Shown: piece by piece, positions 12,178 to 27,938 of the stretch
Position numbering within the stretch: position 1 is the stretch's first letter
Layout of the letters: each line of letters begins with the position of its first letter
The notes under the pieces: generated by a model
Told to the model about the DNA's origin: nothing
Seen by the model: the letters and a program-made list of their open reading frames with translations, nothing else
The model's database searches: none
Position numbers and translations under genes: made by a program
Source of the DNA: Fimbriimonadaceae bacterium
GTDB taxonomy: Bacteria; Armatimonadota; Fimbriimonadia; Fimbriimonadales; Fimbriimonadaceae
Assembly: GCA_019454125.1 (NCBI GenBank)
Contig: CP075365.1
Location: forward strand, 1,172,218 to 1,236,217
Length of the DNA stretch: 64,000 nt
Direction: 5' to 3'

Positions 12178-12287
12178 ATTGCCTCAGATCGGCACCGACT
12201 ATGCTATCATGAATCGTGTCGGGCGCGGCATCGCGGCCGCGAGATTTGCCCCCTTTGCGGGGTTGCCCCAAGGATAGGAAGGACACG

Positions 12288-12959
12288 ATGGCGAACGGCG
12301 TAACGGAGACCGTGCCTTTGGCCAATCAGCGGTTGGTCGAGGTTGAACCTCGCGTCATCACCTATCGAAAGCGAAAGCGGATCTTGGACATCTTTGGCTC
12401 CGGCACACTCCTCGTCCTGCTCTTTCCTCTCATGCTGGTCGTGGCGATCTTGGTCTACCTGCAGGATCGCGGGCCGGTCTTTTACGTCTCCAAGCGCGTC
12501 GGGCGAGGGGGCCGGGTCTTCCCGTTCTACAAGTTTCGGTCCATGTACGTCGACGCGGACAAGCGGCTGGCCGATCTGAAGGCTAAGAACGAGAAGGAAG
12601 GGCCCATCTTTAAGATGAAAAAGGACCCCCGGATCACTCCGGTCGGCCGGTTCATCCGGAAGTACAGCTTGGACGAGCTGCCCCAGCTCTTAAACGTGTT
12701 CAAGGGCGACATGAGCCTTGTCGGCCCGCGCCCGCCGATCCCCGCAGAGGTCGTCCAGTACAACGACTTTCAGAAGGAACGGCTGTCGGTCCGCCCGGGG
12801 CTCACCTGCTATTGGCAGATCATGGGCCGCAGCGATCTTAGCTTCGACGAGTGGATGGAGCTGGACCACCGGTACTTGCGTGAGATGAGCGTTTGGACGG
12901 ACCTGAAGATCCTCATCAAGACCCCCATCGCGATCCTGAAAGGCGACGGGGCCTACTAG
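12288..12959 (+). CDS. Polyprenyl-phosphate sugar-1-phosphate transferase (priming glycosyltransferase)
   Basis: A 223-residue member of the bacterial sugar transferase family that moves the first sugar phosphate from a nucleotide sugar to undecaprenyl phosphate, starting repeat-unit assembly of an exopolysaccharide. One membrane helix (about residues 33-57) is followed by the family motifs GPVFYVSKRVGRGG, PFYKFRSM, SLDELPQLLNV and SLVGPRPP, then RPGLTCYWQIMGRS. It corresponds to the catalytic C-terminal half of WcaJ/WbaP proteins; the long multi-helix N-terminal half is absent. AGGAAGG is placed well before the ATG at 12288. It opens the exopolysaccharide locus. Confidence 0.95.
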   Translation: MANGVTETVPLANQRLVEVEPRVITYRKRKRILDIFGSGTLLVLLFPLMLVVAILVYLQDRGPVFYVSKRVGRGGRVFPFYKFRSMYVDADKRLADLKAKNEKEGPIFKMKKDPRITPVGRFIRKYSLDELPQLLNVFKGDMSLVGPRPPIPAEVVQYNDFQKERLSVRPGLTCYWQIMGRSDLSFDEWMELDHRYLREMSVWTDLKILIKTPIAILKGDGAY

Positions 12960-13023: not shown

Positions 13024-14106
13024 ATGCCCGAGCTTCCGCGAAACCCCAGGGGCGAGGTGCGACTCCAACCCGACGCCGTTTACTCTTGGGACAGGGCCGA
13101 GCCCTGGACCTTGGGGGAGGACGTCCGGGTCGTCGGCAACGGGGCAAGGATCATCGACGAGCGTGTGGACCGGCCGACGATGGTCTTGGTCGGCGAAGGC
13201 AACCGATTGGAAGATTTCATCCTTATCGGCAGCCCGCCCGGCCCCCATCTGACGCCGCTTTCCTCCGGCCTGGGCAAGGTGTTCGATGGGACGGCGAGGC
13301 CGCGGCTCCTGGCCAGCGCCTCGCACCACGACGTGAGCCAAGCGAGGATCGTGATCGTCGGGGTCGAGACGGCCTTGAAGGGCCTGACTGTGAGGAGCGC
13401 GACGGGCGTCGTCTTCCTGGCCCGGCCCAGTGGCCTCAGCGCACGGGGCAACTCCGTCACGGATTGCCGCTTCGAGGACTACCGCTTCGCGGTGCTCGCC
13501 AGCGCCCAGGAGCGGATCGCCTTCTCCCGCGTCCGGGGGCGGGCAAAGGTCTCCACGACCTTTCCGCCCGGGCACCTCATCTATTTTAACGAGAGCCGAC
13601 TGGGCACCGAGTACCTCCGGTCGCGGGAGATCGAGATTCGCGATTGCCGCGACGACACGGACGATCTCGGCGGGCTCGACCATTGCACGTTCAAGTTCAA
13701 GGGGGTTGATGCGTTGCGCCTGACGGATTGCGTGACGCACAACCCGTGCGGGGCGCTGGACGCCTGGGACTCCAGCGGCACCATCCTGCGGCTCTCGATG
13801 GACTCGGACGGGGAGGGCCAGCCCAACCCGGTCTTCGGCGCCTTCCGGATCGGGTCCGATATGCCGAGGTACGGAGTCCCCACCGACACGCTCCTGCTGG
13901 AGAACTGCTCCTTCGACGTCGGCCGGACGACCGCGCCGGTCTATCGGGTGGAGACCCCCAACGTCCGGTTCAAGGACGTGATGGTGCGCGGCGGGGCCGA
14001 TGCGGTGGTGTGGGAAGGTTGCTCCGATGCCGGGGTCCGGCGGGCGGAGGAGATTTTTGGCCTCGCGAGCAGGCTGCCGTACCCGAACGCCTCCCAGGGT
14101 TCCTGA
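13024..14106 (+). CDS. Predicted right-handed beta-helix protein, function unknown
   Basis: A 360-residue protein whose sequence falls into about ten turns of 20-25 residues with short strands and Asn/Cys-rich corners (NSVTDCRFEDYRFAVLAS, REIEIRDCRDDTDDLGG, DTLLLENCSFDVGR), the look of a pectate-lyase-like beta-helix. No signal peptide is seen, so it may act in the cytoplasm or leave by another route. Such folds in polysaccharide loci are often lyases or epimerases, but I see no catalytic motif that decides this. It lies between the priming transferase (64 bases upstream) and the exosortase. The ATG at 13024 has no Shine-Dalgarno. Confidence 0.85.
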   Translation: MPELPRNPRGEVRLQPDAVYSWDRAEPWTLGEDVRVVGNGARIIDERVDRPTMVLVGEGNRLEDFILIGSPPGPHLTPLSSGLGKVFDGTARPRLLASASHHDVSQARIVIVGVETALKGLTVRSATGVVFLARPSGLSARGNSVTDCRFEDYRFAVLASAQERIAFSRVRGRAKVSTTFPPGHLIYFNESRLGTEYLRSREIEIRDCRDDTDDLGGLDHCTFKFKGVDALRLTDCVTHNPCGALDAWDSSGTILRLSMDSDGEGQPNPVFGAFRIGSDMPRYGVPTDTLLLENCSFDVGRTTAPVYRVETPNVRFKDVMVRGGADAVVWEGCSDAGVRRAEEIFGLASRLPYPNASQGS

Positions 14107-14303: not shown

Positions 14304-15224
14304 ATGTCGTTGCCGGAATCGACCGCTCCCGCGTTCGAGGCCCCAATTGCCGACGTAAAGGCCCCCCAGGCTTCTGAGCGTCGGGCTTTCAATTGGCAGG
14401 CCCTCCTCACGAACAAGGTCTTTTTGGCCTCGATCCTTGTTCTCGCTGCCGTTGTCTTCTGCTTCGCGCCCTTGATCCCCGAGATCAAGAAGCGGTGGCT
14501 GGACATGGACGGCTACTACGCCCACGGCTTGCTGATCCCGCTCTGTGCGGCCTACTTGATTTGGGACAAGTGGGACCGGATCAAGGAGATCCCGGTCAAG
14601 GGCGTCCTCTGGATGCTCGTGCCGATGGGGGTCGTCCTCTACATCTCGATGGCCGCAGCCCGCGCCATCATGCCCTCGGCCCTGTCGGTGCTCCTCGTGA
14701 TCGCCCTCGGGCTCAGCGTGGTCTTCCTGGCCGGCTGGCGATGGCTCTGGGCCACCCTGCCGTCGCTGCTCTTCCTCCTCCTCGGTTTCCCCGTGTTCGA
14801 CCGGGTGATCGACTCGTCCACGATGCCGCTTCAGATCAAGTCGACCTCGGTCGCCTATTACATCTTGAAGGCCGTGGGATTGAACCCCTTGCGGCTTGAC
14901 CCCACCGTCATCCACCTGGACAACTTCGACTTGAACGTGGCCGCCGCGTGTAGCGGCCTCAAAACGACGATCGCGGTCTCGGCCGCAGTCATCTTCTTCA
15001 TGCTGATCGCGAAGCTTCGGTGGTGGGCCAACTTGCTCCTGGCCGCGATCGCCATCCCCTTGAGCCTCATCATCAACGGGGTCCGCATCTCGATGATCGG
15101 CATGGTCGGGAACTCGTACGGGCATGACGCCGGCATGCAGTTCCACGACTACAGCGGCTACATCGCCCTTGCCATGTGCTTCCTCATCCTTGGCTGGATC
15201 ACGAAGAAACTAGGATACAAATAA
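14304..15224 (+). CDS. Exosortase (EpsH-family membrane transpeptidase)
   Basis: A 306-residue polytopic membrane protein with about eight helices. The three catalytic features of exosortases are present in order: Cys216 in AAACSGLKTT, Arg261 in NGVRISMIG and His281 in HDYSGYIAL (His274 is a nearby alternative). Exosortases recognise a C-terminal PEP-CTERM-like signal and transfer secreted proteins to the envelope or matrix, and they are typically encoded within exopolysaccharide loci as here. GGAG lies well placed before the ATG. The next gene, one base after the stop, encodes the EpsI partner. The subtype cannot be told without a profile search. Confidence 0.92.
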   Translation: MSLPESTAPAFEAPIADVKAPQASERRAFNWQALLTNKVFLASILVLAAVVFCFAPLIPEIKKRWLDMDGYYAHGLLIPLCAAYLIWDKWDRIKEIPVKGVLWMLVPMGVVLYISMAAARAIMPSALSVLLVIALGLSVVFLAGWRWLWATLPSLLFLLLGFPVFDRVIDSSTMPLQIKSTSVAYYILKAVGLNPLRLDPTVIHLDNFDLNVAAACSGLKTTIAVSAAVIFFMLIAKLRWWANLLLAAIAIPLSLIINGVRISMIGMVGNSYGHDAGMQFHDYSGYIALAMCFLILGWITKKLGYK

Positions 15225-15225
15225 G

Positions 15226-15891
15226 ATGGTCGATAAGAACTTTTACATCCGGGTAGGCGTCCTCGTGGCGCTCTTCGGCACCTTCGGGGTCGTGAACAAC
15301 GTCAACGCGTTCAGCACCGCCGGCCGCCCGCCGGAGTCTTGGCTCGAGAACATGGCGCCCGCCACCTTCGGCGACTATGAGCTCGTGCCCGAAGTCCCCG
15401 GCAGCAAGGTCTCATACAAGATGGACAAGCTCACCTATGATGAGCTGAACCCCATCGGCATCTGCGCCCAGAAGTGGAAGAAAGGGATCGAATCTTACGA
15501 CGTAGTCATCATCGCGGGCGACCAGATGGAATCGTTCCACGATCAGCGCTGGTGCTTCGTCGCCCAGGGCTGGACCCTAGACCAGGAGAAGGTCATCAAG
15601 TTCCCGACCAAATCGCACGGCGACATCCCGGGCTACTTAGTTCAGATCGAGCGTCCCGGCATCCCTAAAACGTGGGCCCTCTTCACGTTCCAGGGGCCGA
15701 ACGGCTTCCGCGCGACCACGCCGGAAGCCTCGAAGGACTACTTCATGCACGAGATCACGACCGGAAAGCGCTTCACCGGTTTCTCCTACCGCTTCATCCC
15801 GCAGTGGACAGGCGCCACCGCGGAGCAGGTCTTGAAGTTCGCAGGCGACTTTATCGACCGGGCGAACGAGACGAGCAAAGGAATCCTCTAA
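15226..15891 (+). CDS. EpsI-family exosortase-associated protein
   Basis: A 221-residue protein with one N-terminal membrane anchor (about residues 7-26) and an extracytoplasmic domain containing FHDQRWCFVAQGW (about 105-117), which occupies the place of the conserved Cys-containing motif of EpsI (DUF3485) proteins. EpsI regularly follows or fuses to exosortases; its exact job is not settled but it works with the polymer-export and sorting system. The start lies one base after the exosortase stop, so the pair should be co-translated. Its last four bases overlap the convergent prenyltransferase gene. Confidence 0.85.
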   Translation: MVDKNFYIRVGVLVALFGTFGVVNNVNAFSTAGRPPESWLENMAPATFGDYELVPEVPGSKVSYKMDKLTYDELNPIGICAQKWKKGIESYDVVIIAGDQMESFHDQRWCFVAQGWTLDQEKVIKFPTKSHGDIPGYLVQIERPGIPKTWALFTFQGPNGFRATTPEASKDYFMHEITTGKRFTGFSYRFIPQWTGATAEQVLKFAGDFIDRANETSKGIL

Positions 15892-16769
15892 TTCTCGAGG
15901 AACGGGAGCCGCGCCCCGCTGAGGGCGGTGAGCGCGGCTGCCACAAAGAGGACGATGCTCCCCCAGATGTGGGGGTCGCCAAACAGGATGTCCGCCGGCT
16001 CGCCGCCCTCGTCCTGCTTCAGGACTATCCACAAGTAGCGCGTGACCGCATAAAAGACGAACGGCGCCGTCAGGAGCAGTGCAGGATAGCGGTGGGCAGT
16101 CCGGCTCTCGATCGTATAGATGCCGTAGCACAGTGCGGCTGCTGCCGCGAAGAACGTGACAAGCCCGTCCAGGGCCTTCAGCGAGTAATCGGCCAGGCTG
16201 GCACGGCTCGCGGCCCGTTGGTCGCCCATCGCGATGAACTCGTTCCGCCGCTTGGCGAAGCCCAGCATAAGCGCCAAGGCCCCCGTGCAGAAGAGCAGCC
16301 ACGACGAGATCGTAACGGGGATGGCGGCTGCCCCGAGCACGGCCCGGAGCACAAAGCCGGTCGAGATGAAAAAGACGTCGAGCACGGCCACCGACTTGCC
16401 CCGCAAGTTGTAGATCAGTTGGATGACGAGGTAGGCCACGATCAGCGCCAGGCTCGTCTTGTTGAGATAGAAGCCCAAGGCGGCGGCGCCGAGGACCAGG
16501 ACGACCGCGAGGACCGCCGCGACCGAGACCGGAACCTTGCCGGAAGCGATGGGCCGGAGCCGCTTTTTCGGGTGGACACGGTCGCTCTCGACGTCCAGGA
16601 TGTCGTTCCAAACGTAGACGCCGGAGCTCGCCAGGCACATCGCCACGAAGGCGATCAGCGCCCGGATCAAAGAATCGGGGTCTCCGGCCTTACCTGAGAA
16701 GATAAGAGCCCCGAAGATTAGGAGGTTCTTGGACCACTGTTTCGGTCGCAAGAGCTGAAGGTAAGGCAT
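15888..16769 (-). CDS. UbiA-family prenyltransferase, decaprenyl-phosphate phosphoribosyltransferase-like
   Basis: A 293-residue integral membrane protein with eight to nine helices. The first Asp-rich motif NDILDVESDRVHPKKRLRP and the start MPYLQLLRPKQWSKNLLIF match the branch typified by decaprenylphosphoryl-5-phosphoribose synthase (Rv3806c), which transfers phosphoribose to polyprenyl phosphate. In mycobacteria this makes the arabinose donor; in a polysaccharide locus it may provide a polyprenyl-linked pentose. It runs against the flanking genes. AGGA lies three bases before the ATG. Confidence 0.88.
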   Translation of the reverse strand: MPYLQLLRPKQWSKNLLIFGALIFSGKAGDPDSLIRALIAFVAMCLASSGVYVWNDILDVESDRVHPKKRLRPIASGKVPVSVAAVLAVVLVLGAAALGFYLNKTSLALIVAYLVIQLIYNLRGKSVAVLDVFFISTGFVLRAVLGAAAIPVTISSWLLFCTGALALMLGFAKRRNEFIAMGDQRAASRASLADYSLKALDGLVTFFAAAAALCYGIYTIESRTAHRYPALLLTAPFVFYAVTRYLWIVLKQDEGGEPADILFGDPHIWGSIVLFVAAALTALSGARLPFLEN

Positions 16770-18250: not shown

Positions 18251-19396
18251 ATGCCGCCAAATCCGATCCGCGCCGTCCTCTCTTCGCCGTCGAAGTTCCA
18301 CTTCTTCGACTTGGCGAGGGAATTGCTGCGCCGGGGCAGCTTGAGCGCGGTCATAACGGGTTATCCGATCACCAAGCTTCGCGGGGAAGAGATTCCGCTC
18401 AACCTCATTAAAAGCTATCCCTACTTCCACCTCATTTACCGAGGAATGATGGCTTTGGGGATCGACTTGGAGTATTACGACAAGGCGGTCTTCGACCAGT
18501 TCTCGGCGCGTGCCTTGCCGCAATGCGACGTCTTTATGGCCATGGCCGGATCCGCCTACAGGACCGGGTTAACGGCTAAGAAAAGAGGGATCCGTTTCGT
18601 TTTGGACCGGCCCTGCAGCCACATTGAGACCCAGAACGCCCTGCTCCGCGAGGAGGGGGAACGGGAAGGCATCCCATTCAAGGGAATTGACGCGGGTGTG
18701 ATCCGCCGTGAGCTCAAAGAGTACGACGAAGCGGACCTGATCACGGTGCCGTCCACGTTCGCGCTCAATTCGTTCTTGGAGCGTGGCTTTGACAGAAACC
18801 GGCTCAGGTTGATCCCGTACGGCATCGACCTGAGCAAGTTTTTCCCGACCGAACCCCCTGACCCCGAACGGTTCGACGTCATCTTTGTGGGCGGCGTGAT
18901 GCTGCGCAAAGGCGTGCCGCACCTTCTTAGGGCTTTCGAGAGGGTTAGGCACGACCGAAAGAGCTTGACTCTAATCGGCAATATCAACAAAGAGATGCAG
19001 CCTTTGTTGAACGAATATGCCTCAAAGATGTCCGTCGTCGCGACGGGGCACATCAAGCAGTCGGAACTGAAGGACCATATGAGCAAAAGCCATGTCCTCG
19101 TGCTTCCGAGCATCGAAGACGGCTACGGCGTCGTCATGAGCCAAGCAATGGCTTGTGGAACTCCCGTCATCGCGACCGACCACACGGGGGCCGCGATGCT
19201 CTTCGAGGATGGTAAGGAGGGCTTCATTGTTCCGGTTCGCGACGATGAGGCCTTGACATATCGGTTGCAGACGCTGGCCTCCGACCACGGCCTCCAGCGC
19301 CAAATGGCCCAGGCTGCGCAGACTCGAGTCGCCCAGATTGGGGGTTGGACCAAATACGGGGACGACATTGAAGCGATGTTTAGGGAGATAATCTAA
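18251..19396 (+). CDS. GT4-family glycosyltransferase
   Basis: A 381-residue GT-B enzyme that adds a sugar to the lipid-linked repeat unit. The C-terminal nucleotide-sugar domain contains IPYGIDLSKF, FVGGVMLRKGVPHLLRAF and the donor-site segment SIEDGYGVVMSQAMACGTPVIATDHTG. In the usual E-x7-E motif the second acidic residue appears to be Gln here (E...SQ), which is uncommon and could affect retention of activity or sugar choice. The N-terminal domain (LSSPSKFHFFDLARELLRRG) is the acceptor side. Acceptor and donor cannot be named. Confidence 0.9.
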   Translation: MPPNPIRAVLSSPSKFHFFDLARELLRRGSLSAVITGYPITKLRGEEIPLNLIKSYPYFHLIYRGMMALGIDLEYYDKAVFDQFSARALPQCDVFMAMAGSAYRTGLTAKKRGIRFVLDRPCSHIETQNALLREEGEREGIPFKGIDAGVIRRELKEYDEADLITVPSTFALNSFLERGFDRNRLRLIPYGIDLSKFFPTEPPDPERFDVIFVGGVMLRKGVPHLLRAFERVRHDRKSLTLIGNINKEMQPLLNEYASKMSVVATGHIKQSELKDHMSKSHVLVLPSIEDGYGVVMSQAMACGTPVIATDHTGAAMLFEDGKEGFIVPVRDDEALTYRLQTLASDHGLQRQMAQAAQTRVAQIGGWTKYGDDIEAMFREII

Positions 19397-25769: not shown

Positions 25770-27938
25770 TCAGGGGCGACGGGTTCTGCGGTAACCGTGG
25801 TCTTCGGACCGCATGAACGTGTCGTTTTGCACGCCGACCCAACTCTGCAGGATCGTTCGATAGCCTCGGCGCGGGAGGTCGTTCCCGGCGACGGCGGTCA
25901 GGTCGCCCATGGGTTCGTTGCGGAAGGGGCTGACCATCGTGCCCATATTGTCGGCGACGGTGCAGTTCTTTGGATCTTGGTTGACGCCCCAGATCTCGAG
26001 GATGCCCCAAAGCCTCTTCGAGACGTCCGTTCGGCAGCGCAGGAAGACGTTCGCCTTGATTTGGTTGCCCGTCGGGGTCCGATAGTCGGCCGCGGTCAGG
26101 ATCTTGAAGACGTTGGGGTAGCGGCGCTTCCAGGGCGAGCCCTGCCAGGGAACCCTATTAGCCAGCGTTCGGGGCCAATCGAACCATTCGGCCGGCATCT
26201 GGAGGCCGCGGTCGTCGATCCGGATACCACCGACGCAATCGATCATCACGTTGAAGCGGACAATGTTGTAGTGGCCCGCGCCGACTTGGATCGGCTGCTC
26301 CATGTCCCGGAAGATGTTCCGCTCCACGATGGTGTTGCTGAGCATGTCGTCCAGGTAGATGCCGTGGTTGATGTGGTAACCCGTGATGCGCTTGCTGATG
26401 TTGTAGAGCAGGTTCTCGCGGATCACGTTGCCGCCGTAGGTGAAGTCGCGGGTGCCATAGATGGCGGCCGAGTCCAAGGCGTCGCGGACGCTATCGTAAA
26501 TCTCGTTCCGCTCGATCCGGTGGTCGTTGCCCTCGAAGTAGATGGCCTGGTGGTCCATGCCATGGATCGTGTTGTTCTTCACCCGGCAGCCCATGCCAAG
26601 GATCTCGACCCCAGGGCGATAGAACGGGTTGTTCCGCCCCGTTTCCCAGATGTGGCAGTTGAGGACCTGGTTGCCGCTGCTCTTTAGGAGGGCCCTGTCC
26701 CCGCCCGAGAGGGAGACACCGGTCTCACCGACGCCGGTGACCCGGCAGGAGCGGACCGTGACCGCCCGGCCCTGCGTGACCCGGATCCCGTACCCGCCAC
26801 AGTTCCGGACGGTCAGGCCGTACACCTGGGAGCCCATGGAGTTGCTCAGGCGCACGCCATCCTGACGGCCGTTCTGGATCGTGAACCCTTGGATGGTGAC
26901 GTAGTCCGCGGACGTCACGCCGAAGACCGGTTGGGTCGCCATCGTGAGCACGGCATCGGTCGGCGCCTCTTGCTGGAGCGGATAGTAGTAAAGGAAGTTG
27001 CGGTTGCGGTCGATGTAGTACTCGCCAGGCGTATCGAGCTCGAAGAGCGAGTTGACCAGGACCCAGCGCCCGGGACTTTCCGGGTCCCAGAGAGCCCGGC
27101 GGGCAGGGTCGTTCATGTCGCCGCCTTGGAGGACGGCTTGGAGCGTCCGGGTCGAGCCGCTGATCTTGGCCACCCGTTCCTGCCAGATGGAGAAGAGCCG
27201 GTGGTTCGGTGCCCACCGCACCCAATAGTCTTGGTCGAAGTCCTGTTCTCCGTTGCCGACATAGGCCGGGGTCCGCGCTTGGTCGATCTCCGTGACGATC
27301 GCGGGCTTGCTGTTAGTGCTATCGGGCGCAACCGCCTCTTGGCGGGCCCAACGGCCATTCGGATAGCGGGCCAAGGTCATGGCCTGATCGTTCACCACCA
27401 GTTCCGCGGCCGTCGGGGTGGCATCCCAGTTCGAGGCGAAGTGGGACATGAATCCGGTCTCCGTAATTCCGCTCTTGGAGAGGTCTGCGACCCAGACGTT
27501 AGCCCGGAGGTCTTCCCGGACTTTGTTCAACTGGGGGCCCACCCCCCGGACCCAGTTGGAGACGGGGAGCCCGCCGTCCAAGATCGCCTTGCCTGGGACT
27601 TCGGACCTCCACACCATGCGGCCTTTGTTCGTGCCGCCGTCGAGCGAGGTGAGGCTGAGCCCTGCCGGCATGACGTATCGGCCAGGCGCCACCGTGACGC
27701 AGACTCCCTTTGGCGAGAGCTTCCCGACGCCCCTCAGTTGGCGGATGGTTGTCCGGGCCCCGATCAAGGTCGCTTTCGGGCCTACCGTGCCGCCCTTATA
27801 GGTCTTGGAAGTTCCGTCCCAGCTGTCGTTCCCGTCAGGGGACACAAAGAGGCGGTCTTGCGAGTAGGCGTGGGTGAATGCTCCGAGCGCCAGGGCGAGA
27901 AGCAAGGTAGCGCGAAATTGATGGTTCCGTGCCTTCAT
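25770..27938 (-). CDS. Secreted right-handed beta-helix repeat protein
   Basis: A 722-residue exported protein with a Sec signal peptide (LLLALALGAFTHAYSQ, cut near residue 26). The start of the mature chain, RLFVSPDGNDSWDGTS, followed by a segment on GPKATLIGARTTIRQL, is typical of PL- and GH-like beta-helix proteins of the alginate-lyase/NosD type. From about residue 345 turns of the helix are obvious (YVTIQGFTIQNGRQDGVRLS, NTIHGMDHQAIYFEGNDHRIERNEIYDS). It may cut or modify the matrix polysaccharide of the locus, but no catalytic residue can be fixed by eye. It is convergent with the acetyltransferase and divergent from the chain-length kinase. Confidence 0.9.
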   Translation of the reverse strand: MKARNHQFRATLLLALALGAFTHAYSQDRLFVSPDGNDSWDGTSKTYKGGTVGPKATLIGARTTIRQLRGVGKLSPKGVCVTVAPGRYVMPAGLSLTSLDGGTNKGRMVWRSEVPGKAILDGGLPVSNWVRGVGPQLNKVREDLRANVWVADLSKSGITETGFMSHFASNWDATPTAAELVVNDQAMTLARYPNGRWARQEAVAPDSTNSKPAIVTEIDQARTPAYVGNGEQDFDQDYWVRWAPNHRLFSIWQERVAKISGSTRTLQAVLQGGDMNDPARRALWDPESPGRWVLVNSLFELDTPGEYYIDRNRNFLYYYPLQQEAPTDAVLTMATQPVFGVTSADYVTIQGFTIQNGRQDGVRLSNSMGSQVYGLTVRNCGGYGIRVTQGRAVTVRSCRVTGVGETGVSLSGGDRALLKSSGNQVLNCHIWETGRNNPFYRPGVEILGMGCRVKNNTIHGMDHQAIYFEGNDHRIERNEIYDSVRDALDSAAIYGTRDFTYGGNVIRENLLYNISKRITGYHINHGIYLDDMLSNTIVERNIFRDMEQPIQVGAGHYNIVRFNVMIDCVGGIRIDDRGLQMPAEWFDWPRTLANRVPWQGSPWKRRYPNVFKILTAADYRTPTGNQIKANVFLRCRTDVSKRLWGILEIWGVNQDPKNCTVADNMGTMVSPFRNEPMGDLTAVAGNDLPRRGYRTILQSWVGVQNDTFMRSEDHGYRRTRRP

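What the first reader, a model, noticed from the sequence alone, without database searches (positions are those of the whole stretch)
14304..15891. Exosortase-EpsI pair without a visible sorting substrate
All catalytic residues of an exosortase are present and EpsI follows by one base within an exopolysaccharide locus. No protein in the window carries a PEP-CTERM-type tail (short motif, membrane helix, basic end); the secreted proteins at 25770, 50476 and 55110 lack it. Substrates must be elsewhere, or this subtype uses a different signal.
Basis: partly seen in the sequence, partly recalled or inferred. Interest (0 to 1): 0.55.

Follow-up and report, generated by a model that had tools for sequence, protein, structure and literature searches.

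The report
Ordinary exosortase, its substrates elsewhere
The window carries a bacterium's exosortase, an enzyme thought to sort secreted proteins to the cell surface, and the targets that seemed to be missing are simply elsewhere in the same genome, so this is an ordinary system in a little-studied phylum.

Summary
The exosortase (14304-15224, +) and the EpsI-like gene one base behind it (15226-15891, +) are real and lie in a polysaccharide locus. No PEP-CTERM tail was found in the 64 kb. The same 2.65 Mb genome holds 39 PEP-CTERM matches over the TIGR02595 cut-off and 39 over the PF07589 cut-off. I read 44 of the 46 places in the union; 42 encode proteins ending in PEP, a hydrophobic stretch and basic residues, 41 of the 42 with a signal-peptide-like start. 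The nearest lies 5.5 kb before the window. With 42 tails placed at random, a 64 kb window would be empty with a chance of 0.36. It is the only exosortase found in the genome. In 59 family genomes, exosortase and tails are both present in 52 and both absent in 7; in a second family sample two draft genomes have tails but no exosortase found. Mildly new: the enzyme and its EpsI fall below every named NCBIfam subtype cut-off.

The parts
14304..15224 (+). Exosortase (EpsH family), 306 aa, with Cys216, Arg261, His281; subtype not assigned by NCBIfam
   Evidence: only exosortase found in the genome
15226..15891 (+). EpsI-like protein (DUF3485 relative), 221 aa, with the FHD...CF motif that is invariant in 20 aligned homologues
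   Evidence: directly downstream of the exosortase on the same strand in 30 of 30 loci
12216..12959 (+). Sugar-phosphate transferase (Bac_transf), polysaccharide locus
   Evidence: PF02397 227.6 bits; TIGR03025 293.8 bits, just under its cut-off of 295.55
18251..19396 (+). Glycosyltransferase, polysaccharide locus
   Evidence: PF00534 99.8 bits
21003..22124 (+). Glycosyltransferase, polysaccharide locus
   Evidence: PF00534 63.9 bits
24001..25152 (+). Glycosyltransferase, polysaccharide locus
   Evidence: PF00534 103.3 bits
28116..30203 (+). Wzz-type chain-length determinant with AAA domain, polysaccharide locus
   Evidence: PF13614 48.8 bits, PF02706 34.3 bits

Best explanation
An ordinary PEP-CTERM/exosortase system. 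[quoted passage not shown] The single exosortase cuts the tail at the PEP site with its Cys/Arg/His residues and releases or transfers the protein to the cell surface or polysaccharide matrix, with EpsI as an accessory. Shown here: the genes, the tails, their number, the pairing with EpsI, and the co-occurrence of enzyme and tails across genomes. Inferred from the known family: cleavage, the acceptor, the destination and the role of EpsI.
For: 39 TIGR02595 and 39 PF07589 matches over cut-off in the genome, none in the window; 42 of 44 places read have the three-part tail; one exosortase found in the genome; conserved Cys/Arg/His; 251 phylum genomes: 192 with both, 35 with neither, 10 tails only, 14 exosortase only; 59 family genomes: 52 both, 7 neither; EpsI directly downstream in 30 of 30 loci; substrates Thr- and Asn-rich and poor in Cys and Lys/Arg compared with 23 window genes, as Haft et al. 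2006 describe. G241, whose exosortase has an internal stop, has only 4 tails.
Against: Tails without a detected exosortase occur: 10 of 251 phylum genomes and, in the second family sample, G268 (160 contigs, 98% complete, 80 tails) and G257 (68% complete, 11 tails); assembly gaps may explain these but were not excluded. 14 of 251 have an exosortase and no tail at E<=0.01. At E<=10, 2 of 14 control genomes also give a TIGR02595 match over cut-off, so single matches are not proof. No processing was observed.
Confidence: 0.95

Rival explanations
1. The exosortase uses a different, unrecognised C-terminal signal, and the PEP tails belong to something else.
For: The enzyme is below all named subtype cut-offs; 14 of 251 phylum genomes have an exosortase but no TIGR02595 tail.
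Against: 42 classic tails in a genome with one detected exosortase; 52 of 59 family genomes have both and 7 of 59 neither.
Confidence: 0.03
2. The pair is a relic without present function.
For: The window's EpsI alone scores below the Pfam and NCBIfam cut-offs.
Against: Both frames are open, the Cys/Arg/His residues are kept, 42 tails are maintained, and the pair stands together in 30 of 30 loci.
Confidence: 0.02

Closest known systems
PEP-CTERM/EpsH (exosortase) system, Haft et al. 2006 (PMC1569441; abstract and sections 5 and 6 read)
   Same: EpsH-family protein with Cys-x-Gly, Asn-x-x-Arg, His-x-x-x-Gly; EpsI directly behind it; polysaccharide locus; dozens of signal-peptide proteins with PEP-helix-basic tails scattered in the genome (the paper reports up to 65)
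   Different: Armatimonadota instead of the phyla listed there; the PrsR/sigma-54 control described there for Proteobacteria was not found
Exosortase subtypes XrtW (NF038142) and XrtA (TIGR03109)
   Same: Best-scoring subtype models, 137.8 and 122.5 bits
   Different: Far below their cut-offs of 425 and 208 bits; the 494-position XrtW model is matched only over positions 3-231, and EpsI is a separate gene here
EpsI families: DUF3485 (PF11984), EpsI type B (NF045609), XrtU C-terminal domain (NF033780)
   Same: 20 of 20 family homologues match each of the three at E<=0.1
   Different: The window's own protein is below each cut-off: 16.9 of 26.1, 17.5 of 220, 26.6 of 40 bits

Membership tests
PEP-CTERM/exosortase system | EpsH-family membrane protein over the general cut-offs | tested here: met
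   PF09721 164.2 of 25.7 bits; TIGR02602 124.8 of 105.55 bits
PEP-CTERM/exosortase system | Conserved Cys-x-Gly, Asn-x-x-Arg, His-x-x-x-Gly | tested here: met
   Present; Cys, Asn, Arg, His kept in 29 of 30, last Gly in 28 of 30 family sequences
PEP-CTERM/exosortase system | Several PEP-CTERM proteins with signal peptides in the same genome | tested here: met
   42 kept of 44 read of 46 places; 41 of 42 with a signal-peptide-like start by a simple heuristic
PEP-CTERM/exosortase system | Enzyme and tails occur together across genomes | tested here: met
   192 both, 35 neither, 10 tails only, 14 exosortase only of 251; 52 both and 7 neither of 59 in the family; two further family drafts, G257 and G268, have tails only
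PEP-CTERM/exosortase system | Polysaccharide gene neighbourhood | tested here: met
   Sugar transferase, glycosyltransferases, Wzz-like protein
PEP-CTERM/exosortase system | Cleavage of the tail by the exosortase | not testable with these tools
   Needs an experiment
EpsI (DUF3485 / TIGR02914) | Own protein over the family cut-off | tested here: not met
   16.9 of 26.1 bits; no TIGR02914 match at E<=0.01 in the own genome, while the other 15 of 16 genomes searched have one
EpsI (DUF3485 / TIGR02914) | Homologous to EpsI through intermediate sequences, and encoded directly behind an exosortase | tested here: met
   20 of 20 homologues match DUF3485, best E 3.9e-13; 14 of 20 match TIGR02914; 30 of 30 loci
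Named exosortase subtypes (XrtW, XrtA, XrtD, XrtV and others) | Subtype model over its cut-off | tested here: not met
   Every subtype model listed is below its cut-off; the same for 10 homologues (two of them the same sequence) among models with E<=1e-20

The most novel reading that the evidence does not exclude
The Fimbriimonadaceae exosortase and its EpsI form a distinct, unnamed subtype with its own EpsI type and its own, not sigma-54-based, regulation, acting on ordinary VPEP tails.
Probability: 0.35. Interest if true: 0.25.

Novelty: new member of a known kind. Interest (0 to 1): 0.1.

Why it matters
It documents a standard PEP-CTERM sorting system as a common trait of one Armatimonadota family, and it shows that a sorting enzyme without substrates in a 64 kb window is expected when the substrates are scattered over the genome. 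Its practical use is as a simple case (one exosortase found, one EpsI, about 42 candidate substrates) in an under-studied phylum. I found no paper on it in the held library.

Tried and rejected
PEPxxWA-CTERM (NF035944): 19 weak matches in the genome, none over cut-off; 18 of the 19 are places already found with TIGR02595. A second exosortase: none found. A shared upstream motif of the substrates: in 41 upstream stretches of up to 300 bases the commonest 7-, 8- and 9-mers stay within the range of 20 shuffles, and a strict sigma-54 pattern occurs in 0 of 41 (start codons chosen by a heuristic). PrsR (TIGR02915): best match 386.3 bits, below the cut-off of 502.6; PrsK and PrsT were not searched. 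A conserved link to the UbiA-type prenyltransferase beside EpsI: directly beside EpsI in 5 of 30 loci and elsewhere in the locus in 2 more; the loci are short, so absence is weak evidence.

Rows dropped before counts. Of 46 places in the union, 2531058 (11.8 bits, under cut-off) and 372188 (13.8 bits, one stop) were not read. Of the 44 read, 578379 (no PEP, under cut-off) and 1897859 (VPEPAT followed by a long basic extension; over the TIGR02595 cut-off) were dropped. Of the 42 kept, 41 pass at least one cut-off; 2584578 passes neither but reads IPEP, hydrophobic stretch, RRR. The 41 upstream stretches leave out 1926219, whose frame is short. One search scored at most 32 candidates per genome, so its counts are lower bounds. 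In one search loci were given for the best 30 matches only, from 57 of 61 family genomes. No structure prediction and no exosortase tree were run.

That holds for the 59 genomes, but the second sample has two genomes without an exosortase match, G257 and G268, that do have tails.

Full report
Observation. The exosortase scores far over the Pfam cut-off and over the general exosortase cut-off TIGR02602, but under every named subtype listed. Its Cys-x-Gly, Asn-x-x-Arg and His-x-x-x-Gly motifs are those described by Haft et al. 2006 (PMC1569441; abstract and sections 5 and 6 read). Cys216, Gly218, Asn258, Arg261 and His281 are kept in 29 of 30 family sequences, the exception being cut short by a stop; Gly285 is kept in 28 of 30. 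Sugar transferase, glycosyltransferase and Wzz-like genes surround the pair. No PEP-CTERM tail was found in the window.

Where the substrates are. The window is bases 1172218-1236217 of a 2,652,248-base, single-contig genome, 97.1% complete. TIGR02595 gives 42 matches at E<=10, 39 over cut-off; PF07589 gives 43, 39 over cut-off. None lies in the window; among the 42 places kept the nearest are 1166674, about 5.5 kb before it, and 1280535, about 44 kb after it. Controls: at E<=10 two of 14 control genomes give a TIGR02595 match over cut-off and none of 14 a PF07589 match over cut-off; at E<=0.01 TIGR02595 rings in none of 14. I read 44 of the 46 places of the union and kept 42: 38 are VPEP followed by A, T, G or V and then T or S, 2 VPEPSL, 1 TPEPAT, 1 IPEPGL. 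In all 42 PEP begins 20 to 28 residues before the end and the last 8 residues hold at least 2 basic ones; 41 of 42 have a signal-peptide-like start by a simple heuristic. In their alignment only P-E-P is invariant. Few have known domains: at E<=0.001, 35 of 42 match the Pfam PEP-CTERM motif, 3 DUF4394, 1 CHRD, 1 trypsin (and two related peptidase models, 1 member each), 1 CBM_4_9. Compared with 23 window genes they are rich in Thr (8.9 against 5.4%) and Asn (7.3 against 3.4%) and poor in Cys (0.25 against 1.04%) and Lys+Arg (5.2 against 11.0%), the pattern reported by Haft et al.. If 42 tails were placed at random, a 64 kb window would miss all of them with a chance of 0.36. The missing substrate is therefore not surprising.

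One enzyme and its partner. TIGR04178 and PF09721 each find one exosortase in the genome, this one. In 251 genomes of the phylum, 192 have both exosortase and at least one tail, 35 neither, 10 tails only and 14 exosortase only; asking for at least 3 tails gives 168, 39, 6 and 38. In the 59 family genomes of that sample 52 have both and 7 neither. Related genomes are not independent, so I give no weight to the Fisher values printed there. Against this: in a second family sample (57 of 61 with an exosortase match) four lack one. Two of them, G181 and G185, also lack tails. The other two have tails: G268 80 and G257 11, with no exosortase at E<=10; both are fragmented (160 and 190 contigs; G257 is 68% complete). 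G241, whose exosortase frame holds a stop, has only 4 tails, as if enzyme and tails decay together. An EpsI relative lies directly behind the exosortase on the same strand in 30 of 30 loci examined, the window's own included. The window's EpsI alone is under the Pfam cut-off, but 20 of 20 homologues match DUF3485, and F104, H105, D106, C110 and F111 are invariant in the 20.

Organism. The one named relative found is a Fimbriimonadaceae MAG (60% identity over the exosortase), phylum Armatimonadota. That the window belongs to this family is inferred from this match and from the same sequence turning up as a same-family genome (L101).

Mechanism. As in the known model, the signal peptide exports the protein, the tail holds it in the inner membrane, the exosortase cuts at PEP, and the protein moves on to the surface or the polysaccharide. 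Cutting, destination and the role of EpsI are inferred, not shown. The sigma-54/PrsR control reported for Proteobacteria (abstract of PMC1569441) was not seen here, so regulation is open.

Verdict. A standard PEP-CTERM system; the refutation condition in the finding is met. The small remaining novelty is that neither the exosortase nor its EpsI reaches a named NCBIfam subtype, and that I found no paper on the system in this phylum: Armatimonadetes and PEP-CTERM, 1 listing on LuxI/LuxR; Fimbriimonas and exosortase, 0; Armatimonadota and exosortase, 0; 14 listed, none with PEP-CTERM. These searches cover only the held open-access library. Of PMC12188702 (cyanoexosortase B) I saw the listing and one passage of the abstract, of PMC9850573 (floc formation) the listing.

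Noticed in passing
15888-16769 (-): UbiA-type prenyltransferase convergent with EpsI; passes the NCBIfam cut-off for decaprenyl-phosphate phosphoribosyltransferase (246.7 of 234 bits). It lies directly beside EpsI in 5 of 30 loci.
   Followed up: partly
   Followed up: no
Genomes G123, G181, G185, G200, G212, G243, G249 (same family): Seven family members that lack both exosortase and tails; five are of one genus (g2) whose other sampled members have both, suggesting joint loss.
   Followed up: no
L118 (G241:C22:16220-17050): Exosortase frame with an internal TAG stop in a genome with only 4 tails, possibly a decaying system.
   Followed up: partly
G268 (same family): 80 PEP-CTERM tails but no exosortase match at E<=10 in a 160-contig draft rated 98% complete; assembly gap or another enzyme, not resolved.
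   Followed up: partly
G000:C1:1255129-1256235 (+), about 19 kb after the window: A response regulator that scores 386.3 bits on the PrsR model TIGR02915, below its cut-off of 502.6.
   Followed up: no
window 13024-14106 (+): A 360-aa reading frame just before the exosortase with no Pfam or NCBIfam match at E<=0.01.
   Followed up: no
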